From a virus: a stretch of DNA of 64,000 nucleotides. The stretch lies in IMG/VR virus record IMGVR_UViG_3300030329_003696, positions 102,834-166,833 of that record; one strand, 5' to 3'. The stretch's first letter is position 1. Each line of letters begins with the position of its first letter. Positions 13,219 through 58,305 of the stretch are shown one piece after another. The position numbers and the translations under genes were made by a program. Under the pieces are notes generated by a model. The model did not search any database. It worked only from the letters and a program-made list of their open reading frames with translations, and was not told the origin of the DNA.

Positions 13219-14085
13219 TTAGTCCGTAGAATCGACTTGTGCCCCATAGATACGCTTCCAGTCTTGATCTTCCCTAACAGAGAGGTTGTAGCTCCACGCT
13301 GCTTCTAATAAAGGACAATCGACGCCCTGTTCTGCAAAAAGAGTAATCATACCATTTAAATCTTTTGGAAAACACTTGCCCCCAAACCCCAATTGACCGT
13401 CAGGTCCCGGTACATTCCAGTGTGACCCTCCCAATCTAGAGTCTGTTTGGTTCGCTGCCCCTATAAATTTATTGTAATCAATACCTAAAGATTCACTAAG
13501 TTGATACATATGATTCGCAAAGGTCACCCTAACCGAAAGATAACTGTTGATTGTATACTTTATTAGCTCTGCCTCTGTGTTTGATACAAATATACATTCA
13601 CACCCCACCCACAATGACTCATGATATCTTTGGAATATGCCCCTTAAGGACTCTGAGTCGCCCTCTGGAAGCCCTAAAACATGATACTTGGCATTGCGTA
13701 GGTCTTCGTAAGCATTTCGCTCTGTGAGGAACTCAGGGTTTGTTACAATCACAATATTACTAAATTCTTTTTTGAGTCGCTCTGAAGTTCCCGGTGACAT
13801 AGTTGATTTTATTAAAACGATGGGCTTGTCTACCCTATTTTCTGACAAATCGCTGATCAATCCTAAACTTTGCTCTAATATTCCCGTATGACACTTACCA
13901 TTTTTATCCATAGGCGTCGGAACTGCCACATAAATTAACTCTGAGCGTGTTACAACGCGATTATAACCCTCTGAAATGTCGCCGTCTCTTGCATCAAACG
14001 CTTCTATTGAATGATGAGAGTTTTCGATGAGGAACTTTTCCATAGAACCACCAACAAAACCTCTACCAATAATACCGATTCTCAT
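13219..14085 (-). CDS. UDP-glucose/GDP-mannose dehydrogenase family protein
   Basis: 288 residues. The Rossmann motif GRGFVGG (residues 7-13), VAVPTPMD, STMSPGT, TNPEFLTE and the catalytic-cysteine loop GFGGKCFPKDL (C238) identify a nucleotide-sugar 6-dehydrogenase, which oxidises a UDP- or GDP-sugar to its uronic acid with two NAD. Family members are usually 380-450 residues; this one ends about 50 residues after the cysteine and lacks the C-terminal sugar-nucleotide-binding domain, so it may be a short phage form, or bind its substrate as a dimer in another way. The start at 14085 follows GGGAGAAG. It could act with the GDP-mannose dehydratase at 16694. It does not have the early promoter type. 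Confidence 0.85.
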   Translation of the reverse strand: MRIGIIGRGFVGGSMEKFLIENSHHSIEAFDARDGDISEGYNRVVTRSELIYVAVPTPMDKNGKCHTGILEQSLGLISDLSENRVDKPIVLIKSTMSPGTSERLKKEFSNIVIVTNPEFLTERNAYEDLRNAKYHVLGLPEGDSESLRGIFQRYHESLWVGCECIFVSNTEAELIKYTINSYLSVRVTFANHMYQLSESLGIDYNKFIGAANQTDSRLGGSHWNVPGPDGQLGFGGKCFPKDLNGMITLFAEQGVDCPLLEAAWSYNLSVREDQDWKRIYGAQVDSTD

Positions 14086-16693: not shown

Positions 16694-17689
16694 ATGAAAA
16701 CAGCTATTATTTTTGGCGTTACCGGACAGGACGGAAGCCACCTTGCAGATTTACTACTAGAAAAAAACTACAAGGTCGTAGGAGTGTCTAGGCGTTCCAG
16801 TACAGACAACACAGATAGAATTAGACATATCCTCAATAATGAAAACTTTATTTTGGTTCAAGGAGACATAACGGACGCATTTAGCGTTTCAAGAATACTT
16901 AAAGAATACGTTCATGTAGATGAAATCTACAACCTAGCAGCTCAGTCTCACGTCGCCGTGTCATTTAAGCAACCAGCACTGACTTGGGATATAACGGGAA
17001 AGGGTTGTCTCAATATTCTACAAAGCATGATTGATCTCGATATGTTACAGACTAGATTTTACCAAGCTAGTAGCAGTGAGATGTATGGTAAAAACTACGA
17101 CGAATTATCATCGGGAAGCAAATATCAAGATGAAGAAACAAAATTTTTACCTCAGTCGCCATATGCGATTGCAAAATGTGCCGCTCACTACATGACAAGA
17201 CTAGTAAGAGAAGGTCACGGAATACATGCGAGTGCCGGAATTTTATTTAATCACGAAGGTCCGAGAAGGGGTGAGACTTTTGTAACTAGAAAGATTACAA
17301 AATGGATCGGAGACTTTATTAAAAGTGGACGCGATCCAGAATTTCCAAAGCTGCGTCTAGGCAACTTGGAAGCATTTCGAGATTGGGGGTATGCGGGAGA
17401 TTACGTGGAAGCCATGTGGATGATGCTCCAGCAGGAAAGTCCAGATGATTATGTCATCTGCACTGGTAAAACTCATACGATTCGCGAGTTCCTAGACGTA
17501 GCGTTTTTACATGTGGGTATTGATGACTGGTCTGAATATGTAGTACAAGACCCAGAGTTTTACAGACCAGCAGAGGTAGACTATCTCAGGGGATGCAACG
17601 ACAAGGCTATGGAAAAATTAGGCTGGAAGCCAAATCATTCTTTTGAAGATCTTGTTAAAATGATGGTTAAGCACGATGTAGAGAATTAA
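16694..17689 (+). CDS. gmd: GDP-mannose 4,6-dehydratase
   Basis: 331 residues, the usual length. GVTGQDG (residues 8-14) binds NADP; S126-S128 in QASSSEMYG and Y157/K161 in SPYAIAK form the catalytic set of short-chain dehydrogenase-type sugar enzymes; FNHEGPRRGETFVTRKI is diagnostic of the family. It converts GDP-mannose to GDP-4-keto-6-deoxymannose, the precursor of fucose, rhamnose or perosamine. Large phages use it to remodel host surface sugars or decorate their own structures. It starts behind AAAGGAACAGG and ends one base into the next start (TAATG). Confidence 0.92.
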   Translation: MKTAIIFGVTGQDGSHLADLLLEKNYKVVGVSRRSSTDNTDRIRHILNNENFILVQGDITDAFSVSRILKEYVHVDEIYNLAAQSHVAVSFKQPALTWDITGKGCLNILQSMIDLDMLQTRFYQASSSEMYGKNYDELSSGSKYQDEETKFLPQSPYAIAKCAAHYMTRLVREGHGIHASAGILFNHEGPRRGETFVTRKITKWIGDFIKSGRDPEFPKLRLGNLEAFRDWGYAGDYVEAMWMMLQQESPDDYVICTGKTHTIREFLDVAFLHVGIDDWSEYVVQDPEFYRPAEVDYLRGCNDKAMEKLGWKPNHSFEDLVKMMVKHDVEN

Positions 17690-35500: not shown

Positions 35501-36759
35501 CTAAGTATGTGGCATTTGCTTCGTCAGAGTCAGCTCCATTTGGTTTACATAGAAACCAATTTAAACACTGGATAGGCAGCACAACCTTTGCATATACATA
35601 CCCGGGGGTGCTTGGAGGTACATCGAGAAGAGATTCTGATGACCCAGTTGTGATAATTGTTCAGCACGCAACCAGAACACTCAATGAGCATCAATTACCT
35701 CTTGAGATTCCCGCTTTCTTACTTAGTTTTATAGGTCAACCGTTTAACACTATTGCAAATAGGCCCGATGGACTAACCCCTTCATTCATAGCATCTAACA
35801 ATCTTGAGGGAACTCTTCCAATACGGTGGGGTGCTGAGTTTGCCCTAGATGGTGATGGCGACACAATGATTGTTAGTGACCCTTATGGTCAAACTGGCGA
35901 GGAAGATTGTGGAAGAGTTTGGATCTATAGGTTTAGGTATGATTATATAATAGATGGAAGACCGCCTAAAGTTGAAGCAATAGCAACCTTTGCTGGGGAA
36001 AATGAGCTTGGTCTTATTGTTTCACCCCAGATAAGCGAGGATGGTTCTATTATTGGTTGGGTTGAACCAGGTGGGGGCGACACTGGGGCCATAACTGGTA
36101 ATGTCAGGATATACAAAGATACTACAGGTTCTCCACTCTGGAAAGGCACTCAGCGTCCAGTCCTTCCTAATTATGTTGAAAGACCAATATTTAACCTTGA
36201 TACTCCAGCAGTCTCATCAACAAATAAAAGCATATATAAAATGAGACTTAGTAACGACGGTGATACTTTTATTATTTCCGGTGGAACTCTTTCTGAATCT
36301 TGGGTTAAAGTGTTTACTTGGGATGGTACCAAGTATATGCAGAAGGGTCAAACATTCACTGGTTGCGGTGCGGGCTGGGATATATCAATCAGTGCTGACG
36401 GCCAAACGATTGCATACTCTACACATGAGGCAAATCCAGAATTACCACCTAGAGGAGCTGGATGTTCAAATGATGACCACGGATCTGTTTACGTTTACAG
36501 CTGGAATGGCAGTGCTTGGAATCAAGTTGGACAAACTATCACTTCAACCAATACAGAGGGGACAGATCGCGTTGGCAATATAACAAACTTCTACCGTTTT
36601 GGCAATCGAATTCAACTAGTCAAAACGCAGTTTGGACGATCAGACATGGGAATCCCAAAAGATAGAATGAGGCTTTTAGTGTGGGCCTTTACTAATCCTC
36701 ACCACAGCCCGTCAAGCCACGACAGCCGCTACTTCTTGCATGAGTTTATACCAGAATAG
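32557..36759 (+). CDS. Large protein, vWA-like domain plus beta-propeller
   Basis: 1400 residues from the ATG at 32557 (behind GGGAGGG). After a cysteine-rich start (CNTCCPSDD) an alpha/beta domain carries IGVVFMDESDM and, at about residue 149, VFRDNSGSM, a DxSxS motif as in the metal site of von Willebrand A domains. From about residue 350 on come many FG-GAP/Kelch-like blades (SADGEYIVVG, SDDGSVIALSE, STDGTRVAFFG, SADGQTIAYS, with repeated Y-x-WNG-x-x-W), in two clusters. This order is known from large structural proteins of marine phages; it probably mediates adhesion. One of the longest proteins of the window. Confidence 0.7.
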   Translation: MGRPIVCNTCCPSDDPPPPTDCFGAIGVVFMDESDMASRQAEHVAALQEKIDKYLRAFPDRLIFFMDVEPGRWGSMDYNEWPQFVSSDRCYSLRLEYEAGLSVPQYIKRDSTGFVSDVYDYIVEIVTNSSKSTDEVREIWNTSTEVSVFRDNSGSMFASHVQKTHDKFDTDLQSNGKHIVSSESNGNEDFICPFVFEQCCINQDAADLLKICLDVECTPAELRFLKDPNNIFVIDDPCDSLLLDNTAEACDNCPEVRPDNHEVKYTAAAVQSDGATLNHIDVDYYLQYRDSEDDNFVDLYDLPNDKGGVEQTLDVLLRKFICKDDGGGASSTVGGTTGWKLVDTKVGDDYGGTSYNPEGFGFCIDISADGEYIVVGPSRNPQSVLPDGKQGKIVTFRREVFYGPDIGFGDSLPQVRYNLLNTLDIEDMELVNTITKHHSRNDITITPDGRTMVFSCHGLGPAHSDSFFNGEFFTKAVGKTFVYDLLINKNVEPHTGTWVQRGSAITWDDIGIGGSGGSVEISVIREDGKIKSIGDTVLVCPSNDGNRSHNNIAARVFSWNGTAWIQKGQDLVIPGLPSEPLINGTQKFVFDSAMSDDGSVIALSEIVHNTRGIVRVYEYNTSTSQWDIRHDFVGEKGQHIGSAIGMSTDGTRVAFFGYEGNPSVTSANLSDISIGDFTFTAYDWNGSSYTQVGNTIKFARSNANLLHSGQQPQIDFADKDIVALNVQLDKDMSPSSTSKTIVFKLIGNTWVQQGGDFLAGTDNNISSFGTGTSISRTGFIFDGEHFGHTLVFGDHQHDGNNGKIYIYMGKGNFIPPDDDNECEKVSCHPLISEMGNPPSSCDAFTDQNIGNGCAIRLFNREFRIRASNDSLTTVFSKTFKLYRYLGTEDKPPNPPSGSGKWIELGPLGSSYPAQPYETGKDWNYTGGATRLDPFGVKMISGLPTDPTVNKGHIEVYTSMSPEDPVLSLAFSNQGSENEFNAAKYVAFASSESAPFGLHRNQFKHWIGSTTFAYTYPGVLGGTSRRDSDDPVVIIVQHATRTLNEHQLPLEIPAFLLSFIGQPFNTIANRPDGLTPSFIASNNLEGTLPIRWGAEFALDGDGDTMIVSDPYGQTGEEDCGRVWIYRFRYDYIIDGRPPKVEAIATFAGENELGLIVSPQISEDGSIIGWVEPGGGDTGAITGNVRIYKDTTGSPLWKGTQRPVLPNYVERPIFNLDTPAVSSTNKSIYKMRLSNDGDTFIISGGTLSESWVKVFTWDGTKYMQKGQTFTGCGAGWDISISADGQTIAYSTHEANPELPPRGAGCSNDDHGSVYVYSWNGSAWNQVGQTITSTNTEGTDRVGNITNFYRFGNRIQLVKTQFGRSDMGIPKDRMRLLVWAFTNPHHSPSSHDSRYFLHEFIPE

Positions 36760-36767
36760 GAATAGAT

Positions 36768-38462
36768 ATGTTTAAAATAGCAGACAGAGTGAAAGAATCT
36801 ACATTATCAACCGGTACCGGTTCGGTTGTATTGGCCGGTGCGTATGCCGGTTTTGACTCTTTTGCTAACGGTATCGGAGATGGAAACACTACCTATTACA
36901 CTATAGAAAACTTTAACAGGTGGGAAGTTGGTATAGGTACATACACAGCATCAACAAGCTCTCTTTCTAGAGACGTTGTGTTAAAAAGCTCTTCCGGTGC
37001 GGGGATTAAGATAAACCTAGAGGGATCTTCTATCGTATTTTGTACCCTCCCAGCAGACAGAGCTTTTATCAAAAATCCAGACAACGACATTGAATCCTTG
37101 AGTGGTGTGTTATCCGAAAGCGGTATCTTCAATAAGCTTATAGTAAAGGATGACCTAACCGTAAATGATTCTATTGATGTAAATTCCTTATCAGCCACTG
37201 GTATCTCAACAGAGTCTATAAATATAAGTGCTCACACCGAGACAGAAAGCCTTGCGGTAAAAAATGACACGTTGGTTTCTGGTCTTCTAACACTAGCCCC
37301 ACCAGATGACTCCGGTTGTTTTATACATGCTTACCGTAGTACACTAAATGACAAAACGGTAGCGTTACATATGAATAACGCTTCTTCCCCACTTTGGAAG
37401 CTTGGGTTAAAATCTAATAATAACCACAAATCGGACGCCCCAGATCATGGATATGTTTATGGTATAGATGGTTCTGCTGGTGTTGCCGTAAATAATAACA
37501 ATTATACAGAGATGTCTTCGTCTGCTGGGCTTTTTACCTATCATGACTCACATGTATTATTAAGGGCCAGTTCTGCAACCGGTGTCTATATAGATGGAAA
37601 AACCGCAGCTTATCCTGTCCTTACGGTTCAGGGTGCTGCCGGTCAATCTGAAGACCTCCAAAGATGGGAAACTAGTGCAGGCATAATTTGTGCCCAGATA
37701 ACTAATAACGGAGATTTCTTAACCAGTGGAGATATTACTTCTGCTAGTGGTCAAATATTTCTTCAGGGTGGAGGTAGTCCGGTTAGTGGACCCACTTTAT
37801 GTTTCACTGGAAGTAGCAACAGACGCTTGGGTTTTTATGAAAAGCAGTCTGATGAACAACTATCATTTTGTGCTGCTGGTCGTAATAAAATTATATTTGG
37901 AACTGATCGTCTTCACGTGAATAATGAGGCTTATATTGGGTGGTCTAGCAGTCTTGTTGGCGAAGCTGAAGATTCTTCAGATTTGAACCTAAGAAAATAC
38001 GCCTCCGGTGTAATGTCTGTCCACATCACTAAAGGTTCTACTAATAACTTAGGAGAAATACTCGCTAGTGGATTAACTGCCAGCGGCGTGGAATTAGTAA
38101 ATCATGTACCTGTTTCAATTACAAACAGGCTTTATAACGATGGGGGCACACTTAAGTTTAATGGCTCTGCTGTAAGCAGTTCCAATAGAACACACAACAG
38201 CGTAACGTCTAACTTTTCTATGTCAGATAATTCTGACGTAGTATTTATGGATACATCCTCTTCACCCCTTAATGTTTACTTACCCACAGCCGTTGATCAG
38301 GGCGGTAAAGAACTTATAGTAAAGATGAAGGCGGGGTCAAACTCTGGCGTTTTGGTTGCTAGTGGATCTCAGACTATAGATGGAGAGTCACAATTTGCCC
38401 TAAAGTATGTCAACCAAAGCATTACACTAATCTCAGATAATTCAAATTGGTTCATTACTTAG
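36768..38462 (+). CDS. Tail fibre protein
   Basis: 564 residues. The N-terminal 90 residues (IADRVKESTLSTGTGSVVL, then GDGNTTYYTIENFNRWEVGI and LSRDVVLKSSSG) are the well-known anchoring domain of phage fibres that begins DRVKETT. The middle is strand-rich; the end (SQTIDGESQFALKYVNQSIT, ending SDNSNWFIT) is a terminal module shared with the next protein. A related anchoring domain starts the 1660-residue fibre at 46396. ATG behind AGGAATAG. Confidence 0.8.
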   Translation: MFKIADRVKESTLSTGTGSVVLAGAYAGFDSFANGIGDGNTTYYTIENFNRWEVGIGTYTASTSSLSRDVVLKSSSGAGIKINLEGSSIVFCTLPADRAFIKNPDNDIESLSGVLSESGIFNKLIVKDDLTVNDSIDVNSLSATGISTESINISAHTETESLAVKNDTLVSGLLTLAPPDDSGCFIHAYRSTLNDKTVALHMNNASSPLWKLGLKSNNNHKSDAPDHGYVYGIDGSAGVAVNNNNYTEMSSSAGLFTYHDSHVLLRASSATGVYIDGKTAAYPVLTVQGAAGQSEDLQRWETSAGIICAQITNNGDFLTSGDITSASGQIFLQGGGSPVSGPTLCFTGSSNRRLGFYEKQSDEQLSFCAAGRNKIIFGTDRLHVNNEAYIGWSSSLVGEAEDSSDLNLRKYASGVMSVHITKGSTNNLGEILASGLTASGVELVNHVPVSITNRLYNDGGTLKFNGSAVSSSNRTHNSVTSNFSMSDNSDVVFMDTSSSPLNVYLPTAVDQGGKELIVKMKAGSNSGVLVASGSQTIDGESQFALKYVNQSITLISDNSNWFIT

Positions 38463-38470
38463 TGTATAAT
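38461..38470 (+). promoter_or_regulatory. Late promoter 5 (AGTGTATAAT)
   Basis: It overlaps the TAG stop of the upstream fibre gene; 34 bp before the next ATG. Confidence 0.7.
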
Positions 38471-38504
38471 ACATTGATAAAACACTTTTCACGGGAGATA
38501 GAAA

Positions 38505-39965
38505 ATGTCATACCAACCATACGATAGAAATCCAAGCGGGATTGTATTTTTTGGAACCGACGAAACAGACCAAGTTTACGAATCCAATTCCGCCTTTACC
38601 ATAGGTGACGATACCCTCTCAGCGACCAATATTAAGGTTTCCGATGGCGGAAACATTGGTAGTGCAACGACAGCTAACGCTATAACTATCGCATCTAACG
38701 GAAAGATAACCCTAGCTGGAGATTTACAGGTTAATGGCACTACGACCACTGTTAGTACCACCAACACTGTAGTGTCTGACCTCTTGCTTGAGCTTGGAAA
38801 CGGTACAACAGGTTCAGCCTCCAATGATGCTGGTATTGTTATCGAAAGAGGTGATGACGCCAATGTGTTCATGGGGTTTGATGAATCTGCAAATAAGTTT
38901 ATTATGGGTAGTGGTGCATTTACCGGTGCTAGTACGGGAGACCTAACAATCAATACTGGTACCCTTGTCGCCAACCTTGAGGGCGACGTAACCGGTAATG
39001 CTGATACCGCCACACAGCTTGCAAGTGCAAGAAACTTTAGCATCATAGGCGGCGTTATGGCTGCTAGCGACGTTTCTTTTAATGGCAGTGCCGATGTTGA
39101 CTTGACAGTTACCGCTGCTAGTGGTCTGGTTATGAATCAGTCTACAGAAACATCAATTGCTGACGGCGACTTCTTGGTATTTTCAGATATTAACGATTCC
39201 CACAACCTTAAAAAGATCACTAAGGCAAATCTTGTTTCTGGGCTTGGTGGCGGCGGAGGCATGTCTAATTTTAATATCACTGACGGATCTACAAGTCAGC
39301 AAATTGATGACGGTGAAAATATCACTTTTACAGATGGTACTGGTGCTGAATTTGTTGTTAGTGCCACCAATACCGTTACGGTCAACAGCGTAGACAGCGA
39401 AATCGATCATGATGCATTATCTAATCATGAACCTAATGAACACATTGATCACACTTCGGTCACGATGACTGCTGGTAATGGTTTAACTGGTGGTGGTACA
39501 ATTGCTTCTACCAGAACTTTTGCTGTAGGTGCTGGCACTGGTATCACTGTTAATGCCGACGACGTTCAGATTTCCGATGGAGGTGTTGATACTCTTCAAC
39601 TTGCTGCCGACGCAGTAGATGGAACTAAAATCGAAGACGACGCAGTTGATAGCGAACATATCACAGACGGTGCCGTCGATGAAGTTCACAGAAATAGAAC
39701 TGTAGAAACGGACGCCACTACCACCCATAGTATAACTACAGACATTGTTTTGTGTAATGGCGGAGGAACCCCATTTACCGCCACACTACCTACGGCAGCG
39801 TCAGTAGCTGGGAAAATAGTCACGGTAAAAAATGTGGGCAACGACGCAATAACCGTTGTTGGTGATGGTTCTCAAACCATAGACGGTGCGGCAAGTTATA
39901 TACTCTACCATAGATACGAATCCGTAACAGTTGCTTCTGACGGATCTAATTGGATTATTATCTAA
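38505..39965 (+). CDS. Tail fibre protein
   Basis: 486 residues. Typical fibre shaft phrases are LAGDLQVNGTTTTVSTTNTV, LEGDVTGNADTATQLA and ATSGLVMNQSTE-like stretches, followed by NGLTGGGTIAST and a helical repeat with SEHITDGAVDEVHRN. The C-terminal 100 residues (TATLPTAASVAGKIVTVKNV, SQTIDGAASYILY, SDGSNWIII) are the same terminal module as in the preceding protein. It starts behind a GGGAGATAG ribosome site, downstream of a late promoter. Confidence 0.78.
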   Translation: MSYQPYDRNPSGIVFFGTDETDQVYESNSAFTIGDDTLSATNIKVSDGGNIGSATTANAITIASNGKITLAGDLQVNGTTTTVSTTNTVVSDLLLELGNGTTGSASNDAGIVIERGDDANVFMGFDESANKFIMGSGAFTGASTGDLTINTGTLVANLEGDVTGNADTATQLASARNFSIIGGVMAASDVSFNGSADVDLTVTAASGLVMNQSTETSIADGDFLVFSDINDSHNLKKITKANLVSGLGGGGGMSNFNITDGSTSQQIDDGENITFTDGTGAEFVVSATNTVTVNSVDSEIDHDALSNHEPNEHIDHTSVTMTAGNGLTGGGTIASTRTFAVGAGTGITVNADDVQISDGGVDTLQLAADAVDGTKIEDDAVDSEHITDGAVDEVHRNRTVETDATTTHSITTDIVLCNGGGTPFTATLPTAASVAGKIVTVKNVGNDAITVVGDGSQTIDGAASYILYHRYESVTVASDGSNWIII

Positions 39966-39987
39966 CTAATTATTAGGAAACAAAGAT

Positions 39988-41325
39988 ATGGATTCTATTA
40001 CACTACAAACGCGAGACAATGCAATAGCCAGTGGTGACGTTATAGGTCGCCTCGGCTTTGCTGCGTCATCGGAATCAGACGGGACTAATGCTACACTCGT
40101 TGCAGCTAAAATAGAGACTAAGGCAGAAAAAACTTTCAGTGCTAGCGACAACGCCGCGAGCATGGTTTTTTATCTGGCCAACGATGGTGCAGCGGCTTCT
40201 AAGATGACTCTATCTCCTGCCGGTAATCTGACTGTGGCCGGTGACTTGCAGGCCGCTAACGGAACCCTGAGTGGACTTACGGTTGATTCAACCGGTGGTA
40301 TTAAAGTAAAAAATGGCGATACAAGTGCGGGCTTTATTGAGTTTTACGAAGACTCAGATAATGGTACTAATAAGGTGACCTTGATTGGACGAACGTCCAC
40401 AGGTAGCGACCTTACCGTTAGCTTGCCAGCTTACACCGGCACTTTAGTTTGTTCCGCTGGGACACATACAATAACAGCTTCTGCGGCTTCTGATACACCC
40501 CTTATAAACAAGGGGGAAAGTGGACAATCCGCTTCGCTGCAAGAGTGGCAGAACAACATTGCTACCAAACTCTTGGCAGTCGGACCCGATGGGGGATTAG
40601 AGCTTCCAGACAATACTCCGGATACCACCACTAACAAGCTATACAACGATGGCGGCACCCTTAAATTCAATGGCTCTGCTGTTGGTGGGGGGGGCGGCGT
40701 CGATGCTGCAAATGGTGTTGACAATAGGATTGCCACCTTCACAGATTCAGACAGCTTAAATGGTGAAGCCAACTTAACATTCGACGGATCGGCATTAACC
40801 TGCATAGGCACAATGACAGTTGGCGTTGACGACACGGGGCATGATGTAAAATTCTTTGGTGCTAGATCTGGTTCTTATGTAGAGTGGGATGAAAGCGAAA
40901 ACAGACTGCACTTAGTACAAGGAGCATATGTTAATCAGCCAGTTCCAGCTACCGGAAGCACGACAGAAAATGCTACACTAGAGATAGATCTAAGTAAGGG
41001 TAATTATTTCAATATACTGCTGGGTGACGACATAACAGCCGTCGAGTTTCAAAACGCAACAGTAGGGCAAAAGTTTATTATTCGATTTATTCAAGCCACC
41101 AGTGGGACTGGATGGGGAATAAGTTGGTCAACAGTGAGAATAGATGGAAGTACCGACGCTGAGTTAAAATGGGCTGGAAATATTGCACCAACGATGACTG
41201 GAAACGACGGAACTTCCCATGAGGGACATAAAGATGTCTATGGATTTTTATGCACGGCTACCGGAGGTAGTGACAATGATACTAAATTTGATGGCTTTAT
41301 CATAGGTCAGGACATACCAAACTAA
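39988..41325 (+). CDS. Fibre or structural protein
   Basis: 445 residues. The start (MDSITLQTRDNAIASGDVIG, RLGFAASSESDGTNATLVAA) and phrases such as AGNLTVAGDLQAANGTLSGL are typical of phage fibre proteins. The middle has TLKFNGSAVGGGGGVDAANG, also seen in part in the 564-residue fibre (TLKFNGSAVSS). The C-terminal 120 residues look like a separate globular tip. Belongs to the fibre group; exact position on the virion unknown. Confidence 0.7.
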   Translation: MDSITLQTRDNAIASGDVIGRLGFAASSESDGTNATLVAAKIETKAEKTFSASDNAASMVFYLANDGAAASKMTLSPAGNLTVAGDLQAANGTLSGLTVDSTGGIKVKNGDTSAGFIEFYEDSDNGTNKVTLIGRTSTGSDLTVSLPAYTGTLVCSAGTHTITASAASDTPLINKGESGQSASLQEWQNNIATKLLAVGPDGGLELPDNTPDTTTNKLYNDGGTLKFNGSAVGGGGGVDAANGVDNRIATFTDSDSLNGEANLTFDGSALTCIGTMTVGVDDTGHDVKFFGARSGSYVEWDESENRLHLVQGAYVNQPVPATGSTTENATLEIDLSKGNYFNILLGDDITAVEFQNATVGQKFIIRFIQATSGTGWGISWSTVRIDGSTDAELKWAGNIAPTMTGNDGTSHEGHKDVYGFLCTATGGSDNDTKFDGFIIGQDIPN

Positions 41326-41747
41326 TGGCTAGAAATTTAAGAGATCACGTTGTAGTCATAAGCTCGCTACAATGCCATAATGACGGCTCGGTCAGTGGTT
41401 CTGGCCCTAGCTATACAGTTACATATGACACCGGTGAGGATGTTAGTGATGCACAAATAGGTCACTATGTTTATATAGAAAAAAGAGAAGCTGGAGCCGG
41501 AGCTAGTAGTACAGTATTATCTACATATGTTTATGTTATAACGGGCAAGAATACTGGCGGCGGAGAAGAAATGGAACTGGGCGGGCAGCACGAGCTAACA
41601 CTTAAATACGTATATGATACAGCCGAAACTGGCGACGATTCCCCCGCTGACCTACCCAATGGTAGTGGGAGTTCTGGTTCTCCGGATAGAGCTGACCATA
41701 AAGTAGTTATGATATTAGGACCGGGTTTTGAGATGTTTATGGAGTAA
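41325..41747 (+). CDS. Unknown structural-type protein, 140 residues
   Basis: The ATG overlaps the stop of the fibre gene (TAATG). The protein is strand-rich: VVVISSLQCHNDGSVSGSGP, IGHYVYIEKREAGAGASSTV, LSTYVYVITGKN. It resembles small accessory proteins encoded after fibres but no family is named. Followed 3 bp later by the phosphoribosyltransferase gene. Confidence 0.55.
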   Translation: MARNLRDHVVVISSLQCHNDGSVSGSGPSYTVTYDTGEDVSDAQIGHYVYIEKREAGAGASSTVLSTYVYVITGKNTGGGEEMELGGQHELTLKYVYDTAETGDDSPADLPNGSGSSGSPDRADHKVVMILGPGFEMFME

Positions 41748-41750
41748 AAA

Positions 41751-42785
41751 ATGGGACCAGAGGAATGTAAATGCCCCCAAGCTGGGTATTGTGAATATTT
41801 TAAACAGGAAATGACATACGACCCACCGAACTGGCAGTGGTGTCAAAACGCTAGCCAACAAGAGAGGGCTAGGTACAAGGTTGATTGCGACAAAAAACAC
41901 AAAAGAAGAGAAGAAGAAAAACGAAAATTCTTAGCTGGTGAATATATAACTAACGCACAGCTAATAAGAGACTGTAAAAATTTATTGCTACCACAAGTTG
42001 CGAATTTAGACATAAAAGGTATCGTTGGCATACCAAGATCTGGGATGTTACCGGCTAGTATGATCTCTATATGGCTAAACCTTCCGTTGTATTTTTTAGA
42101 TCCACAAAATAATTTGCTACCGATGTCGGCAGCGAGTAAATTTGGTGGGGTTAGAATGCTCAAACACAGGTCGTCACTCGGCAGACTACTCGTCGTTGAC
42201 GATACCGTATACTCCGGAACCGCAATGAAAAATTTCAAAAAGAAATTGCTTGAAGATGCTTATTTTTGTTCGGTATATTGCAGGCCAGCATCAAAATTTA
42301 AACCAGATTTCTACGGAAGGGAATTAAATCCCCCACACCTTTTAGAGTGGAACCTTTTTAATTGTACATATATCCAAAGTGCCCTGCTTGACTTTGACGG
42401 AATACTCTGCCCAAACGTACCCTTTGATATATTAGACGATGAGGATAAACACAGGGACTGGTTAGCCAACGTGACGCCCTTTTACCATAGAATACCAAGG
42501 GTTCCCTGTAAAGGAATAGTAACAGCTAGATTTGAAAGGTACAGGAGTATAACAGAGGAGTGGCTACATAAACATGGTATTCAATACGGTTCACTAACGA
42601 TGCTTCCAGACGAGATGGAAGAACAAAGACTCAAAGACCACGTAGAAGTTTCTTCTAGTTATAAAGCTAAACATTTCATTGAATCAGATGCAAATTTTTT
42701 CATTGAAAGCGAGGTAGCTGAAGCTGTGAGAATAAGAAAAAAAAGTGGTAAGTTTGTTATTTGCCCGGAGGAAAAAGATGGATAA
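41751..42785 (+). CDS. Phosphoribosyltransferase-HAD fusion protein
   Basis: 344 residues. After a cysteine-containing start (CKCPQAGYCEYF) the N-terminal domain has GIVGIPRSGMLPA and the PRPP-binding loop LLVVDDTVYSGTA (about 145-158), as in orotate-type phosphoribosyltransferases. The second domain opens with ALLDFDGILCP (D214, D216, the HAD nucleophile pair), has VTARFERYRSITEEWL and ends with KAKHFIESDANFFIES, matching HAD motifs I-IV. So a sugar or nucleobase transfer activity is tied to a phosphatase. The cassette with the next two genes suggests surface or nucleotide modification; the substrate is unknown. Confidence 0.75.
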   Translation: MGPEECKCPQAGYCEYFKQEMTYDPPNWQWCQNASQQERARYKVDCDKKHKRREEEKRKFLAGEYITNAQLIRDCKNLLLPQVANLDIKGIVGIPRSGMLPASMISIWLNLPLYFLDPQNNLLPMSAASKFGGVRMLKHRSSLGRLLVVDDTVYSGTAMKNFKKKLLEDAYFCSVYCRPASKFKPDFYGRELNPPHLLEWNLFNCTYIQSALLDFDGILCPNVPFDILDDEDKHRDWLANVTPFYHRIPRVPCKGIVTARFERYRSITEEWLHKHGIQYGSLTMLPDEMEEQRLKDHVEVSSSYKAKHFIESDANFFIESEVAEAVRIRKKSGKFVICPEEKDG

Positions 42786-43338
42786 AATAAAAGAATATGA
42801 AACAGCATTTGAGATGTACTTAGATATCCCCAAAGATGCGGTAGGGGCGGAGATTGGTGTTTGCAAGGGGTGGAATGCTATCCAGTTGTTTCATATCACT
42901 AAACCTACAAAGTTATATTTATGCGATGTGTGGAGAGAAAGACACCCGAACGCCTGCCTCATAGAAGCTCCCCACCTATGGGAAGATGATCACAGGGTTT
43001 TGGTAGGTAAGTTATTTGAAAGAGAAATAGCTTCTAACACAGTAGAACTACACAGGGAATACGGAGGTAATTTTCTTTACGGATTAGAGAACGATTCCCT
43101 CGATTGGGTTTATATTGACGCTTGCCATGATTACAAATCTGTAAAAGTAGAACTAGAGAATGCTCTATATAAGGTTAAGAAGGGCGGCTTAATAATGGGC
43201 CATGACTATGTAACAAACTGTCAGGTGTGGAAGGCTGGTGTTATTAGGGCAGTTAATGAGTTTATTCAGGCTGGTAAAATAAAGATGATTGGAATTAGCT
43301 TGGAGAAATTCCCAAGTTATATGTGCGAGGTACTATGA
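42778..43338 (+). CDS. SAM-dependent methyltransferase (Methyltransf_24 type)
   Basis: 186 residues from the ATG at 42778 behind GGAGG, overlapping the upstream stop by 8 bp. VGAEIGVCKGWNAI (motif I, SAM binding), LYLCDVW (motif II), WVYIDACHDYKSVKVELE and GGLIMGHDY are the signature of class I methyltransferases found in glycan and secondary-metabolite clusters. The target is probably a sugar. Together with the PRTase-HAD and sulfotransferase genes it forms a modification cassette in the fibre region. Confidence 0.78.
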   Translation: MDKIKEYETAFEMYLDIPKDAVGAEIGVCKGWNAIQLFHITKPTKLYLCDVWRERHPNACLIEAPHLWEDDHRVLVGKLFEREIASNTVELHREYGGNFLYGLENDSLDWVYIDACHDYKSVKVELENALYKVKKGGLIMGHDYVTNCQVWKAGVIRAVNEFIQAGKIKMIGISLEKFPSYMCEVL

Positions 43339-43856
43339 TATATCTACCAGAACGAGCAGTTTTCATACATATACCAAGAACTGGAGGTAATTCCATAAAG
43401 AACGCTATCGCATCCGTCTGTATTGGAAAAGACATACCTGCGGTTGTGAGTACGATGCCCACATATATCAAGGAGTTTGATAGAGTTCAAGGCCACCAAA
43501 CCGCGTCAGTACTCAAGGGTTATATAAGAGAGTGGAATGACATTTATAGGTTTGCTGTCCACAGGCCAATTGAAGATAGATTTGAGAGCATGAATAATTT
43601 TATAAAAATGATAAAGGCTAGGCCCAACCACCAAGTTCCTGAGCAGCTTAAAGATTTTATGGCGATAGAGGATCATTTATCTTACTTCAAAAAGGAGTGG
43701 TCTGGCCACACGACCCAGTTCTTTACGCAAGGTCTTTATGGCGAAGATCTAGGCGTAGAAGTGTATAATTATGAGGATTTACCAGATAGATGGCATGAGA
43801 TATGTGATAAGTGTAAGATCCCTAGGTGCGACCTGCCCCACTTAAATAAATCATAA
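43335..43856 (+). CDS. Sulfotransferase
   Basis: 173 residues from the ATG at 43335, which overlaps the stop of the methyltransferase (ATGA). FIHIPRTGGNSIKN (5'-phosphosulfate loop, residues about 10-23) and FAVHRPIEDRFESM (3'-phosphate motif, about 75-88) identify a PAPS-dependent sulfotransferase of the carbohydrate (Sulfotransfer_2) group; the length is short for the family (usually 220 or more). It would transfer sulfate to a sugar. Such genes occur in some large aquatic phages. It is the last gene of the cassette. Confidence 0.8.
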   Translation: MIYLPERAVFIHIPRTGGNSIKNAIASVCIGKDIPAVVSTMPTYIKEFDRVQGHQTASVLKGYIREWNDIYRFAVHRPIEDRFESMNNFIKMIKARPNHQVPEQLKDFMAIEDHLSYFKKEWSGHTTQFFTQGLYGEDLGVEVYNYEDLPDRWHEICDKCKIPRCDLPHLNKS

Positions 43857-43867
43857 AGGAGAATAAA

Positions 43868-44167
43868 ATGGCAATTTTTGAACTCGCAATCGCTGACGAA
43901 GATGTCCAACGTGTCTTTGATGCTGTTTGCGGAAATTACAATCGACCAGAAAAAGTCGATAACCCCGATTTTGACCCCAACCTACCAGAACATGAAGCTT
44001 CAAACCCAAGGCAAATTGATAATCCAGAAACTCAAGGAAGTTTTGTGCATAGGATGGTGAGACAATTTTTGTCTGATCATGTGGCTGCATACGAAATAAA
44101 CTTAGCAAAACAGCAGGCGGTAGAGAACACCTCAGTAGATGTGGACATAACTGATCCGCAACCGTAG
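43868..44167 (+). CDS. Small phage tail-region protein, 99 residues
   Basis: ATG behind AAAGGAG. DEDVQRVFDAVCGNYNRPEK and GSFVHRMVRQFLSDHVAAYE match a small protein found in the tail region of several phages, where it is annotated only as hypothetical. A connecting helix ends in an acidic tail. Function unknown, possibly a structural or assembly factor. Confidence 0.6.
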   Translation: MAIFELAIADEDVQRVFDAVCGNYNRPEKVDNPDFDPNLPEHEASNPRQIDNPETQGSFVHRMVRQFLSDHVAAYEINLAKQQAVENTSVDVDITDPQP

Positions 44168-44188
44168 TTTGATTTTTTCAGTAATTTA

Positions 44189-44197
44189 GGGTATAAT
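44189..44197 (+). promoter_or_regulatory. Late promoter 6 (GGGTATAAT)
   Basis: TATAAT at 44192-44197 only 3 bp before the ATG at 44201, so the message would be leaderless or the true start is elsewhere. Less similar to the TGTGTATAAT word. Confidence 0.5.
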
Positions 44198-44200
44198 ATA

Positions 44201-44446
44201 ATGTTATTTGGCGGCTCAACTTGGTCTGAATTACCAATATCCTCACTGACTGTGCCGCTATTTAATGGCGAAGAGTTTAATTTTACTTCCGCTATTGATA
44301 CAGAGTTGGCAGTGATTAGTACAATAGATCAAGTTTTAGAACCTACAGGAAAAATAGATACAACACTTACGGTTACTGGAACTATTGATCAGGTAGATAA
44401 CTTCACGCTTACTATAGACAGTTCAAAAGAAAAAACGTTAATTTAA
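44201..44446 (+). CDS. Small strand-rich structural protein, 81 residues
   Basis: The chain is made of alternating strands (FTSAIDTELAVISTIDQVL, TLTVTGTIDQVDNFTLTID), with an internal repeat around TIDQV. It starts right next to a late promoter. Probably a small virion protein; no family recognised. Confidence 0.5.
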   Translation: MLFGGSTWSELPISSLTVPLFNGEEFNFTSAIDTELAVISTIDQVLEPTGKIDTTLTVTGTIDQVDNFTLTIDSSKEKTLI

Positions 44447-44455
44447 GGTATAAAG

Positions 44456-44761
44456 ATGGCTAGCCAAATTCATCAAAATGACGTTGGAACAAAGTTACTG
44501 GTAACTGTGACGGATGACGGTTCTGCTGTTGACATATCCGCAGCATCGTCCTTGACAATTTTCCTAAAGCAGCCAGATGGTGACGTTTTAGAAAAATCTG
44601 CCACTTTAAACACAAGCGGTGAAGACGGAAAAATGTACTATTTAACCGTACTTGGAGACCTAGATAAGGCTGGCACCTACAAGATACAGGGCAAGGTGGT
44701 GATATCTACCGGAACTTTTTATACTAGTATTTCCACTTTTAAAGTTCATTGTAATTTATAA
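44456..44761 (+). CDS. Baseplate-type Ig-like protein, 101 residues
   Basis: IHQNDVGTKLLVTVTDDGSA, VDISAASSLTIFLKQPDG and GDLDKAGTYKIQGKVVIST are typical of the BppU-N / DUF2479-like beta sandwich found on phage baseplates and tails. It sits between small structural genes. The ATG follows AAGGTATAAAG. Confidence 0.7.
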   Translation: MASQIHQNDVGTKLLVTVTDDGSAVDISAASSLTIFLKQPDGDVLEKSATLNTSGEDGKMYYLTVLGDLDKAGTYKIQGKVVISTGTFYTSISTFKVHCNL

Positions 44762-44771
44762 GGTAATTATT

Positions 44772-45290
44772 ATGTCTTGGCAAGGTCAAATGGGTCTCAT
44801 AGTTAGACATCTGATAAACGATGTAGATCCCGATAGCTATAAATTTTCAGATCATAGAATAGAAACCACTTTGTTGGTTGCCGCCCAATTATGTCAGATG
44901 AATATAGATTTCACTAATACCTACACAGTCAATGTAGAAAGCTGCGAGCTATCGCCAGATCCCACAGAGGCAGATAGTAAAGATGACGCCTTTATAACAT
45001 TGATTTGTTTGCGTGCTGCGTGTATAATTATAGGTAGTGAAATAAGAAGTGAGTCTGGAAACGCTATCTCCATTAAGGATGGCCCATCAGCCATCGACCT
45101 TCGGGGAGTTACACAAACACTCGCTGTTTTATACAAAGATTTATGTGAAAAATACGAACACTTATCGTTAGAATACAGGGCTGGAAACAGCGTTGCTGGA
45201 CAGTCAATTCTTGGTCCTTATAGCCCCGCCTCAGACAATGTCACTAGGGGGCATATGGGCCATAGGGCTGGTGGATACTTTGATTATTAA
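44772..45290 (+). CDS. Putative head-tail connector protein
   Basis: 172 residues, largely helical. The start (LIVRHLINDVDPDSYKFSDH, RIETTLLVAAQLC) resembles gp6-like connectors, which begin with a helix bundle that fits under the portal; the acidic, Gly-rich C-terminus (GPYSPASDNVTRGHMG) is less typical. The position close to neck genes supports the call weakly. Confidence 0.5.
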   Translation: MSWQGQMGLIVRHLINDVDPDSYKFSDHRIETTLLVAAQLCQMNIDFTNTYTVNVESCELSPDPTEADSKDDAFITLICLRAACIIIGSEIRSESGNAISIKDGPSAIDLRGVTQTLAVLYKDLCEKYEHLSLEYRAGNSVAGQSILGPYSPASDNVTRGHMGHRAGGYFDY

Positions 45291-45303
45291 AGGAGAACTT
45301 TAA

Positions 45304-46353
45304 ATGCCTAACCAATTAAATTCAGGTGAGTTGATAGCTAGTATTTCAGCCGACCTAGCTGACAACAACGCTGGTCTAATTTCAGCAGAAGATGTCAGAC
45401 ACAACATGGAGGACACGGCGTACTCCATTAGAAGAATTGTCGCCAGTGGTGACGCAAACGAGACAAATTTTGTCTTTTACAATACTCTTAGGGTCAGTAA
45501 GTTATCTGCACCTACAGCCGATCTACCTACCGCAACTAGTGGTGACATTCAGGTTGAATCTGGAATATTTTTTCCAAACGCTCCAGAAAACGATGCCAAA
45601 CGTCAGGTGCGACCTTTCCTAGGTAGTAGGAGTATAGATCATAGTCAACTTCTAAACTTAGATGAAGACGATCACCTACAGTACTATAAGTTGGACGGGC
45701 TTCGACCTCTTGAGGGTAACATGAAGACCAATGGGGTATGGATAAATGCTTCTGGCCAAAACTATACAGGTCTTAAATTTAGACCAGATCACACCTCTGA
45801 TGCCACCCAGCAAACCATCTTAGTTTCTGGTTATTCACCATCAGCTAGAAGAACTGAGGCCGGATTTTCCAATCAAGGCGGTTTTGAGTTCATGGATAAG
45901 TCGATCATTCCAAATGGAAAAGGAATGGCGAAAGCTTGGTTATCTTTAGCTACTAGCGGAATCCATAATGGTCAAGATGACAGACCTCAATTATTTGCTT
46001 ATCACAACATCAGTGGTGTGCATCGTATTGCTGAGGGGCAGCTTGCCGTTACCTTTACTTCTGGCACCTTCCACGACAACTCCTATGTTGCGATAGGTAC
46101 GGCTAGTGCTAGAAATACATCCACACCAAAAGACTATGGCCTTGGTGGAACTGCGAATAATCCGGCGAACTTCGAGGTAAACACGGTTGGTATAGCTGGT
46201 AGATCTGGAGTTAGAAACGGCCTAAGAGAGTGTAGGGTCTACATTATAGACGATGACGGCTCCTATCAGGACTCTGATCGACTAGACCTTGTATTCTTTG
46301 GGTATAGCCCGTCAGAAACTTCTGGAACTCACCCAACAATTAGTAGGGCTTAG
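45304..46353 (+). CDS. Fibre-like structural protein, 349 residues
   Basis: ATG behind AAGGAG. The N-terminal module (GELIASISADLADN, LISAEDVRHNMEDTAYSIRR) corresponds to the one at the start of the 910-residue fibre (LISPEDLRTSLVDLVDSV). DEDDHLQYYKLDGLRPLEGN is a hallmark of phage fibres. The C-terminal half is strand-rich. Probably attached to the same site on the virion as the 910-residue protein. Confidence 0.68.
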   Translation: MPNQLNSGELIASISADLADNNAGLISAEDVRHNMEDTAYSIRRIVASGDANETNFVFYNTLRVSKLSAPTADLPTATSGDIQVESGIFFPNAPENDAKRQVRPFLGSRSIDHSQLLNLDEDDHLQYYKLDGLRPLEGNMKTNGVWINASGQNYTGLKFRPDHTSDATQQTILVSGYSPSARRTEAGFSNQGGFEFMDKSIIPNGKGMAKAWLSLATSGIHNGQDDRPQLFAYHNISGVHRIAEGQLAVTFTSGTFHDNSYVAIGTASARNTSTPKDYGLGGTANNPANFEVNTVGIAGRSGVRNGLRECRVYIIDDDGSYQDSDRLDLVFFGYSPSETSGTHPTISRA

Positions 46354-46395
46354 TAATTAATACAGTCAACTTCAGTTTAAAAGGATGCGTGATTA

Positions 46396-49300
46396 ATGTC
46401 CAATAATTTTTTCTTAGCAGACAGAGTAAAAGAGCTTTCTCGCGTTGAAGGGCGAGGGAGCATCAGTTTAGACGGTGCTGTCGATGGATTTAGTTCGTTT
46501 GGAGATTTCTATGCATCCGGCGACGTTGTATTCTATGCGATTACAGATAACGTCAAGTATGAAGTTGGATCTGGTGTTTATACACCGGATGGTTCTACTG
46601 GCCGATCAATAACTAGACAGCCCATGCGAAGCTCAGACATAAACTCTGGGCCTTACTTTATATATGGTAGTGGTGCTGGATCACACGCTGGTCAAGAAGG
46701 ATATTTTTATCCGCTTTGGCTAACGAAGTCTGCGGCAATCAGTGGCGTTGGAATTACTGGTGCCTCAAAGGGGCCGTATTCTAATGCTCATGAACACGTA
46801 TTCTCTGGGGTTCCGGGTGTAACTTTTTATATGCCCTCTGACCATATGGCTCACGGCCTAACAACTAGTGCTGCTAAAACTACTGCGGCAACTAGCGGCT
46901 CAGATTACACGTCTGCATCTCGACCGGTAGACTTTAACGTTGGCACAAAGGAGGTATTTGTAACCTATCCTGGTGCTAGAGCTGTTTACAATGCTTATGG
47001 AATTGATTCAGATACAGCTGAACCAAAACAAAGTGGTTTAGCATTCTGGCAAAATAACCAAATCCTTAGCTATTCCTCTAACTTAGTTTGGAGCGACAGC
47101 GAAAGTTTTCTTGGTATAGATAAGCATAACCCAGAATTTGCTATAGATATTGGTGGATTAAAAAGCTTTTCACAGGTTAGAGCTTCTGGCTTTATGGATG
47201 GTGGTTCTGGTGTTTTATTTTCCGGTATTCCCGGTAGCCGCTCTGGTGGTAGACAGCTAGAACCGTTTTTACGAAATCAGGTGGCTAGTACCGCTAATGG
47301 TGTTATTAAAGTTAGTGGGCTAGTAGATCAGTTTATTGGATTTGAAAACCAAGCCCCAACCCTAGTGTTTGCTGGGCCAGCGAGTGACTGTGGTTGTGAC
47401 GACGCTGTTCCTACTTTCAGGGCTTTAACAGCTGCTGACTTCCCATTGGCTGGTGACGACGGCTTAGATAACAGGTATGTTCAACAGTATAACCCAGGAA
47501 TTGTTTCCAGCGATCCATTCACATTCCAGCTTGGACAGGTTGCCTTATATCAAGCCAGCGGTAAAATAAGTTATTCAAGTGGAATTATTTATGACCCAAC
47601 AAACGATAGACTTGGTCTAGGCGGGGGCAATGTTGGCATTATTGATCCGGCTTACACGCTTGACGTTAGCGGTACAGTAGCTGCCAGCTCTGGTTACTTT
47701 AGCCGAATTACCTTTCCTAATGACAGTATTCATATTGGTAGAAACACTACCCCCAATGACGATAATTATAAGTCATCCGCTGTCGGCTCAACAGTTTCAA
47801 ACTATGTAGCTGTAGGCTTATCCGCCTTCCAAAACTCTAGCGGTATATCTAGCAGTGTTGCGATTGGTCATCGAGCTGGCCACTCGTCTAAAACATTCGA
47901 TCAGAGTGTAGCTATAGGTAGTGGTGCAGCAATAAATTCTGTTTCGGGTATCCAGACTGTCTTTATAGGCGTTCGTGCTGGAGATGTTTCATCTAAAATT
48001 GACCAAACGGTTGCTATCGGTGAAACCGCTCTTTTAGAAGCGAAGAGCTGGGACACTTCGGTAGTAATCGGGTACGGTGCTGCTAGTGGTTCGAGTAAGA
48101 TTGAAAACAGCTTGGCTCTTGGTCAATCTTCTATGACCTCTGCCGCACAATCTTCTGGCATTGTGTCTTTGGGCTATAAGTCTATGTATGATGCAAGCGG
48201 AATTGTTAGAACTGTGTCTGCTGGATTTAGAGCCACTAGGGGCGTTGACGAGGGCAACGATATAGTTTCTATTGGTACAGACAATCTTGAAGACGCTAGC
48301 GGAGTAGATAACGTAATTTCCATCGGTAGAGAGACACTGGTTAGATCTAGCGGTGGACTAGAAGAAGTTACCGCCATTGGTTACCAAGCTGGATACCAAG
48401 CGGTACGAGTAAAAGACAGCACATTTTTAGGTACGTCTGCCGGTCAAACCGCCAGTGGTACCTTCAATATTTATGTTGGCCACAATGCAGGTATTGCTGT
48501 TTCTGGTCATGAAAATATAGAGATTATAGCTTCGGGCGGTAATACTAGTATACTTACTAGCTCTTCTGTTGGCAAAATCAACATAGGTAACACAATAGTC
48601 GGAGACATTAATGCTGGTTCTGTGGGTGTTGGCCATATGACCAATGCAACCCCTCCGGCGACACTATTTGTACAAACGAGTGGTGCAAACGACCACGCCA
48701 TGATTATTCGTCAGCAAGGTTCTGGCTCTAAAGCACCTTATTTTGCCTTACAAAGCGGCGATGCGACTACGTTCTTCCAGATCACAAATAGCGGAAACGT
48801 TATGACTAGTGGCTGGATGTCGCCAAGCGGTGGTTTACATTTAGGCGATAGAGATCCGACTAGGAGTTCTGGTGTTGGCGGCTACACACTATGGAACAAC
48901 GGTGGAACATTAGTTTGGAACGGTAAAACTGTTGATACAGCTGGCGGAACAACATTTAAAGTTTCCCCCTATACCACGAGTGCGGCTTCACCAAAAGCCG
49001 TCGCAATTAATGACGGCCAGTTAGTTACCATCAGTGGTGTTAGCGGCGTTGAAGTACAACAAAACACTGATAGATTCTTAAGAATATCAGCTAGTGGATT
49101 ATCCGGAGTTTTACAGAATCAAATAGATGCATTGAGTGCAGGTAGTTATAATTTCTTTATGACCGCTTCTGGAAACGGCAATAAAAATAACCAGCGACAC
49201 GATGTAGCAGACAACAGTTCTATAGCTCTATCGGGTGTTAGCGGTATTAAGATTGATTTCACTAATCTGACCGGTGGTGGAGACACTACCGGTATTTATA

Positions 49301-55830: not shown

Positions 55831-55929
55831 TAGCCAATAAGTTTTTGTTATTGGTGGACGTTCCCCCCTATTTGCGATAGCGACTTAGGATAGCGAGTAA
55901 AGAAGGGGGGAGAGGAAAGGAAATTAATT
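55831..55929 (+). promoter_or_regulatory. Structured leader before the chaperone gene
   Basis: Two stem-loops: CCAATAA/TTATTGG (55834-55840 with 55848-55854) and CCCCCC/GGGGGG (55863-55868 with 55905-55910, 36-nt loop), the second ending just before a GAGGAAAGG ribosome site. No T-run follows, so it does not look like a terminator; it may limit how much of the next genes is made. Confidence 0.6.
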
Positions 55930-55980
55930 ATGAACATCTATACTCCCGTTTACTATGAGGTTCTCCATGACTCCATATGA
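55930..55980 (+). CDS. Short upstream ORF (16 codons)
   Basis: ATG at 55930 lies nine bases after GGAAAGG, the best ribosome site in the region, and encodes MNIYTPVYYEVLHDSI before TGA. The frame is -1 relative to the next gene (start 55967), which lies inside it. It is either a leader peptide that couples translation or the 5' part of a frameshifted product. Confidence 0.4.
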   Translation: MNIYTPVYYEVLHDSI

Positions 55981-57004: not shown

Positions 57005-57006
57005 AG

Positions 57007-57381
57007 ATGAATAACTACGATGACCTCATCCGGAAGCAATCAGAGTACAAAAGTGTAAGAGAGGATAAATATAGAGTTGACTCTAAAGACAGGCTTTCAA
57101 AAATATTAAAGAAAAAAGTACAGACCACCATGATTGGATCGCTTAGTTCTATAGAAGAACACTTTTCATTCCTCTGGTCTACAGATAGTTCGGAAATGAC
57201 CCCAGAACAAAAAATGATGTATGAAATTTTTCAAAAGGTCAGATCTGAGATTTTAGATAAAGGAAACACCCAAGCACGAAATATAGATGCTGAGTTAGCT
57301 CAATATGACGTAAAATGGTTAAGATACCAAAATAACATTCCAGTTAGAAACCAAGACTTAGGAGAAGGACAAGATGGCTAA
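57007..57381 (+). CDS. Unknown helical protein, 124 residues
   Basis: ATG two bases after the upstream stop, behind GGAGG. The chain is charged and helical (SIEEHFSFLWSTDSSEM, QARNIDAELAQYDVKWLRYQ), with no domain named. It overlaps the next gene by 8 bp. It belongs to the assembly operon between tube and tape measure. Confidence 0.55.
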   Translation: MNNYDDLIRKQSEYKSVREDKYRVDSKDRLSKILKKKVQTTMIGSLSSIEEHFSFLWSTDSSEMTPEQKMMYEIFQKVRSEILDKGNTQARNIDAELAQYDVKWLRYQNNIPVRNQDLGEGQDG

Positions 57382-58270: not shown

Positions 58271-58305
58271 CTGGATAGTGTAGTCTTACATAACAAAGGT
58301 AAACA

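What the first reader, a model, noticed from the sequence alone, without database searches (positions are those of the whole stretch)
41751..43856. Phosphoribosyltransferase-HAD fusion with methyl- and sulfotransferase inside the fibre cluster
Three overlapping enzyme genes interrupt the row of structural genes. PRPP-loop and HAD motifs in one chain are not a combination I know from phages. Together with methyl- and sulfo-transfer this suggests sulfated, methylated sugars or modified nucleotides placed on fibres or host surface, linked to gmd and the dehydrogenase upstream.
Basis: partly seen in the sequence, partly recalled or inferred. Interest (0 to 1): 0.6.

Follow-up and report, generated by a model that had tools for sequence, protein, structure and literature searches.

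The report
Viral ribose-adding enzyme with sulfation partners
A marine phage carries, among its tail-fibre genes, a two-part enzyme that most likely takes ribose from the cell metabolite PRPP, adds it to a sugar chain and trims off the leftover phosphate, together with a methylating and a sulfating enzyme; the same unstudied enzyme occurs in the tail modules of dozens of other uncultured viruses and in bacterial slime-capsule gene clusters.

Summary
ORF 41751-42785 encodes one chain: a small Cys-rich module, a type I phosphoribosyltransferase (PRT) and an HAD phosphatase. It overlaps a Methyltransf_24 gene (42778-43338) by 8 nt, and that gene overlaps a sulfotransferase (43335-43856) by 4 nt. 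All lie in a row of tail-fibre genes. The AlphaFold model is confident (pLDDT 91.9). Core PRT and HAD residues are invariant in 47 viral homologues. Residues equivalent to purine-specific residues of the closest solved PRTs (XGPRT Asp92, Lys115) are not conserved.

The family anchors tail modules in 55 non-redundant loci. It is followed by sulfotransferases, methyltransferases, pyruvyltransferases, GT8s or sugar epimerases, and is fused to GT8 or to LicD plus methyltransferase. Full-length cellular homologues sit in exopolysaccharide clusters. The best reading is a PRPP-dependent glycan ribosyltransferase with built-in phosphatase. It works like the gPRT-PRP/CriT-CrpP enzymes, but fails their membership test: reversed domain order, adjacent DD motif, little or no HAD cap, no detectable homology. 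The likely target is the virion's own fibres (about 60:40 over host surface). Activity, acceptor and timing are untested.

The parts
41751..42785 (+). PRT-HAD fusion, 344 aa: proposed PRPP-dependent glycan (phospho)ribosyltransferase with built-in phosphatase
41766..41930 (+). N-terminal Cys-rich module (C6, C8, C14, C31; residues 6-60), shared with a GT8 glycosyltransferase of the same virus and with GT8/GT4 proteins of other viruses; absent from the cellular homologues examined
41940..42365 (+). Type I phosphoribosyltransferase domain (residues 64-205)
42186..42224 (+). PRPP loop LLVVDDTVYSGTA (residues 146-158); D150, D151, T152, G156 invariant in 47
42333..42353 (+). Family signature PHLLEWN (residues 195-201), at the hood position that contacts the base in purine PRTs; becomes PR.FEWN-like in cellular members
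42366..42782 (+). HAD phosphatase domain with little or no cap (residues 206-344): D214xD216, T258, K305, E319
42778..43338 (+). SAM methyltransferase (Methyltransf_24); ATG with GGAGG upstream, 8-nt overlap with PRT-HAD
43335..43856 (+). PAPS-type sulfotransferase (IPRTGGNS and HRPIEDRFES motifs); ATGA overlap with the methyltransferase
16694..17689 (+). GDP-mannose 4,6-dehydratase (gmd), possible sugar supply
13219..14085 (-). UDP-glucose/GDP-mannose dehydrogenase, possible sugar supply

Best explanation
The 344-aa protein is a bifunctional glycan ribosyltransferase. [quoted passage not shown] The HAD domain in the same chain then removes the 5'-phosphate, leaving ribofuranose that the co-translated methyltransferase and PAPS-dependent sulfotransferase can decorate. 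The Cys-rich N-terminal module, shared with phage glycosyltransferases, probably docks the enzymes on a common acceptor. The cassette is embedded in the tail-fibre operon and the record shows no lipid-linked export genes, so the acceptor is most likely the virion's own fibre glycan, with host surface glycan second. Shown: domains, conservation, gene linkage, domain sharing and fusions, cellular homologues in polysaccharide loci. Inferred: PRPP as donor, ribose as product, order of steps, acceptor.
For: Confident two-domain model; PRT fold and HAD-type phosphatase fold, weak scores. Core catalytic residues invariant in 47 viral proteins and in six cellular ones. Purine-PRT residues not conserved: the XGPRT Asp92 equivalent is mostly Y or M, never D; the Lys115 equivalent is mostly N, H or R, K in 3 of 47. 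Linkage: 40 of 45 sulfotransferases, 23/23 methyltransferases, 13/13 pyruvyltransferases and 7/7 GT8 in the loci lie within three genes downstream of PRT-HAD. Fusions: PRT-HAD-GT8 in L027, LicD-PRT-HAD-Methyltransf_24 in L084; PRT-HAD beside GT2-GT4-GT4 and an epimerase in L082. The Cys-rich module is also on GTs. Cellular homologues (hhalign E=1.6e-54) lie in exopolysaccharide clusters. PRPP-ribosyltransferase plus HAD phosphatase is an established way to put ribofuranose into glycans (PMC10299916, PMC12096443, PMC11127046). A further glycan island in the same virus without PF02397 or PF01943.
Against: No activity, product or structure with substrate. The PRT's nearest solved relatives make nucleotides. 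19 of 55 locus groups show none of the partner types I modelled within three genes; some of these are contig ends or carry other glycan genes, such as Sulfotransfer_4 in L047. In Rhizobium plasmids the homologue sits beside a glycosyltransferase and T6SS genes, with VgrG annotated in two of the four, not in an exopolysaccharide cluster. The record may be incomplete, so absent export genes are weak evidence.
Confidence: 0.63

Rival explanations
1. Nucleoside maker: the PRT joins PRPP to a purine-like or unusual base and the HAD dephosphorylates the nucleotide to a nucleoside used as a small molecule or as a modified nucleic acid building block.
For: The PRT fold is closest to 6-oxopurine PRTs; PRT plus phosphatase is the logic of nucleoside synthesis; the automatic GO term of cellular members is nucleoside metabolism.
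Against: Purine-recognition positions are not conserved; neighbours are glycan enzymes, not nucleotide or DNA-modification enzymes; fused to GT8 and LicD; cellular members in exopolysaccharide clusters.
Confidence: 0.15
2. Host-surface modifier: same ribosyltransferase chemistry, but the cassette remodels the infected cell's surface polysaccharide (superinfection exclusion, or release of progeny from receptor).
For: Cellular homologues lie in surface-polysaccharide clusters; sulfation and pyruvylation are typical of exopolysaccharides; the virus carries gmd and a sugar dehydrogenase.
Against: Genes sit inside the tail/fibre operon in most viral loci and among structural genes of a planctomycete prophage, a late-gene position; no flippase PF01943 or initiating transferase PF02397 in the record.
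Confidence: 0.25
3. A redox- or nucleotide-sensing regulatory protein with degenerate PRT and HAD domains and no catalysis.
For: PRT-fold regulators exist (PurR and GfcR-like hits).
Against: The catalytic motif residues of both domains are invariant across viruses and cells.
Confidence: 0.03

Closest known systems
Dual-domain ribofuranosyltransferases gPRT-PRP (Klebsiella O4/O7, Thermobacillus composti; Kelly et al. 2022, described in PMC11127046 and PMC11231755)
   Same: PRT-type domain and HAD phosphatase in one chain, in glycan biosynthesis loci; PRPP donor proposed here
   Different: Order reversed (PRT first), compact canonical type I PRT, little or no HAD cap, no detectable sequence similarity; PRPP use not shown here
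Bcs3 CriT/CrpP of H. influenzae b (PMC10299916) and Cj1432 of C. jejuni (PMC12096443)
   Same: PRPP ribosyl transfer plus HAD dephosphorylation, combined with another transferase in one chain, as in L027 (GT8) and L084 (LicD)
   Different: In CriT the two acidic residues equivalent to DD lie in different loops; here they are adjacent; CriT carries helical bundles; HAD precedes PRT
Type I 6-oxopurine PRTs (E. coli XGPRT, Sulfolobus GpT-1/GpT-2)
   Same: Fold, PPi loop and PRPP loop
   Different: Base-specific Asp and Lys positions not conserved, hood replaced by PHLLEWN; fused HAD
Phage PNKP-type HAD phosphatases (phrog_415, Pnkp1)
   Same: HAD core with DxD, T and K motifs
   Different: No kinase; joined to a PRT
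Unnamed 'phosphoribosyltransferase family protein' of alphaproteobacterial plasmids
   Same: Full-length homologue of both domains, 28-34% identical to the window protein
   Different: No Cys-rich module in those examined; in exopolysaccharide clusters or beside T6SS genes instead of tail modules

Membership tests
Type I phosphoribosyltransferase | PRPP loop with adjacent acidic pair and Rossmann-like PRT core | tested here: met
   D150 D151 G156 invariant in 47; fold hits E=4e-8
Type I phosphoribosyltransferase | Uses PRPP | not testable with these tools
   Needs enzyme assay
6-oxopurine PRT (XGPRT/HGPRT) | General-base Asp in PRPP loop and Lys contacting O6 (roles from general knowledge) | tested here: not met
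   Equivalent residues 154 (mostly Y/M, never D) and 178 (mostly N/H/R; K in 3/47)
HAD phosphatase | Motif I DxD, motif II T/S, motif III K | tested here: met
   D214, D216, K305 invariant; T258 46/47
HAD phosphatase | Motif IV acidic pair | tested here: inconclusive
   FIES: E319 46/47, second acid variable
gPRT-PRP dual-domain ribofuranosyltransferase | PRT-type and HAD domains in one chain in glycan loci | tested here: met
gPRT-PRP dual-domain ribofuranosyltransferase | HAD N-terminal to the PRT, as in Bcs3 and Cj1432 | tested here: not met
   PRT 64-205, HAD 206-344 versus order in PMC10299916, PMC12096443
gPRT-PRP dual-domain ribofuranosyltransferase | Acidic pair in separate loops (CriT D680/E818) | tested here: not met
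   Adjacent D150-D151 versus PMC10299916 section 9
gPRT-PRP dual-domain ribofuranosyltransferase | Helical cap on the HAD | tested here: not met
   About 40 residues with one helix between motif I and next core strand; cap described in PMC10299916, PMC11127046
gPRT-PRP dual-domain ribofuranosyltransferase | Sequence homology to solved members | tested here: not met
   No entry named as Bcs3 or a ribofuranosyltransferase among 56 PDB hits to E=10
PAPS-dependent sulfotransferase | Sulfotransferase family match and PAPS-binding motifs | tested here: met
   phrog_3347 E=2e-12; IPRTGGNS and HRPIEDRFES
SAM methyltransferase Methyltransf_24 | Pfam match over curated cut-off | tested here: met
   56.7 bits vs 26.3

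The most novel reading that the evidence does not exclude
A second, independently evolved class of PRPP-dependent ribofuranosyltransferase, recruited from the nucleobase-type PRT lineage and joined to a minimal HAD phosphatase. It is used by bacteria for exopolysaccharide and by many marine viruses to build ribose-containing, sulfated, methylated or pyruvylated glycans on their own tail fibres.
Probability: 0.4. Interest if true: 0.8.

Novelty: new variant of a known kind. Interest (0 to 1): 0.62.

Why it matters
PRPP-dependent glycan ribosylation was assigned to enzymes only in 2022-2025. A second, architecturally different enzyme family for it, shared by bacterial exopolysaccharide loci and the tail modules of dozens of uncultured viruses, would explain many 'phosphoribosyltransferase family proteins' misfiled under nucleotide metabolism. 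It would also give a concrete, testable case that phages decorate tail fibres with sulfated ribose-containing glycans.

Tried and rejected
Named phages: tblastn with the window protein found nothing at E=0.01; divergent relatives gave only partial PRT or Cys-module matches. NCBIfam gives no specific family. Nucleotide or DNA modification was considered and set aside for lack of nucleotide genes nearby and loss of purine-PRT residues. SAR202 as host: the window shares 13,032 bp at 100% identity with a contig in a SAR202 MAG, but this may be co-binning of the same virus, so host is left open; no tRNA in the window to help. Promoter scan was about what shuffles give, and the + strand terminator-like matches lie inside coding sequence. 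Literature searches found no description of this family.

Full report
What is there. The window is bases 102834-166833 of a 166,833-base virus record. In a row of + strand fibre-like ORFs lie three tightly packed enzyme genes. Reading the sequence for ribosome-binding sites puts the starts at 41751, 42778 and 43335, so the genes overlap by 8 and 4 nt and are probably translationally coupled. The first is a 344-aa chain with a Cys-rich N-terminus, a phosphoribosyltransferase domain and an HAD domain; the second is a Methyltransf_24 enzyme; the third is a sulfotransferase.

Structure. AlphaFold2 on 47 window and locus proteins gives pLDDT 91.9 and pTM 0.84. Foldseek against the PDB returns hypoxanthine/xanthine-guanine PRTs (E down to 4e-8). 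The HAD domain alone (pLDDT 95.1) gives weaker matches to HAD-type phosphatases: vegetative storage protein, Pnkp1, MDP-1. In BFVD no viral protein convincingly matches over both domains. Core residues are invariant or nearly so: R96, S97, G98, D150, D151, T152, G156 (PRT); D214, D216, T258, K305, E319 (HAD); and a family-specific PHLLEWN. The positions aligned with XGPRT Asp92 and Lys115 (roles from general knowledge) are not conserved, which argues against an ordinary purine salvage enzyme.

Distribution. A profile scan found 74 viral loci, most carrying PRT-HAD and a few only the Cys-rich module. The PRT-HAD core is constant while the N-terminal Cys-rich module varies. The window's type of module is also found on GT8/GT4 glycosyltransferases, including one in this same virus. 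After grouping at 90% identity there are 55 groups; 28 have a sulfotransferase, 19 a methyltransferase, 8 a pyruvyltransferase and 36 at least one such partner within three genes downstream. In the loci examined, 40 of 45 sulfotransferases and all methyltransferases, pyruvyltransferases, radical-SAM and GT8 genes fall in that interval (the p-values there are inflated by related loci). In L027 PRT-HAD and GT8 are one ORF. In L084, a planctomycete MAG contig, LicD, PRT-HAD and Methyltransf_24 are one ORF. A planctomycete prophage in Thalassoglobus neptunius has PRT-HAD followed by a sulfotransferase inside its structural genes, and a planctomycete chromosome has PRT-HAD, sulfotransferase, methyltransferase and a GT-like gene in a row. 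The family is rare in cellular genomes: 6 of 392 Planctomycetota and 1 of 301 from the phylum of the SAR202 bin, the latter being the viral contig itself.

Cellular relatives. Two planctomycete proteins without the Cys-rich module led to 41 alphaproteobacterial plasmids with full-length homologues (hhalign E=1.6e-54). In Paracoccus and Bosea they lie among glycosyltransferases, nucleotide-sugar enzymes, LPS or exopolysaccharide biosynthesis proteins and, in Bosea, a polyprenyl glycosylphosphotransferase. In four Rhizobium plasmids they lie next to a glycosyltransferase and T6SS-type genes (VgrG annotated in two), a different context that is not explained. Catalytic residues are the same.

How it probably works. 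Studied systems put ribofuranose into glycans by moving ribose-5-phosphate from PRPP and then removing the phosphate with an HAD domain (PMC10299916, PMC12096443, PMC11127046). The same pair of activities in one chain, in glycan loci, makes this the best explanation here. By features it is not a member of the gPRT-PRP family: domain order is reversed, the DD pair is adjacent, the HAD has little or no cap, and no sequence homology was found. So it works like them without being one of them.

Acceptor. The cassette sits inside the tail/fibre operon in most loci, and the virus record has a further glycan island at 28.5-54 kb with epimerases, GT4, GT8, Methyltransf_24 and a sulfotransferase but no Wzx-type or initiating phosphoglycosyltransferase family. 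That favours a cytoplasmic acceptor such as the virion's own fibres over exported host polysaccharide, about 60:40. Neither has been shown, and the record may be incomplete.

Limits. No activity, donor, acceptor or expression data exist. Neighbourhood statistics come from related metagenomic contigs. The structural comparisons rest on predicted models.

Noticed in passing
L109-L110 (record G000 bases 28545-54000, outside the window): A glycan island of about 22 minus-strand genes: two epimerases, two GT4, a sulfotransferase, two Methyltransf_24, DUF5672, DUF6492, DUF6625, an NTP transferase and a GT8 carrying the same Cys-rich module.
   Followed up: partly
L110:15051-19532 (G000 bases 55051-59532): Three DUF1501-type genes close together with secretion-like N-termini, unusual cargo for a phage; related viruses (L072, L077) also carry DUF1501-type genes.
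   Followed up: partly
L071:541-730: In one relative only a 50-codon stump of the Cys-rich module remains between the flanking tail genes, suggesting the whole cassette was lost.
   Followed up: no
L104, L105, L106, L101: Rhizobium plasmid homologues of PRT-HAD sit between a caspase-family or peptidase gene and a large glycosyltransferase near T6SS-type genes (VgrG annotated in two).
   Followed up: no
L078 (VFHP01000007.1) versus window 35751-48782: A contig binned in a SAR202 MAG is 100% identical to the window over 13,032 bp; a hint of host that may only reflect co-binning. Another contig of that MAG (L086) carries a terminase 73% identical to the window's.
   Followed up: partly
L010:7033-8431 and L025: An alternative cassette: an unknown 324-aa protein plus a cytidylyltransferase-like protein in place of methyl- and sulfotransferase.
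   Followed up: no
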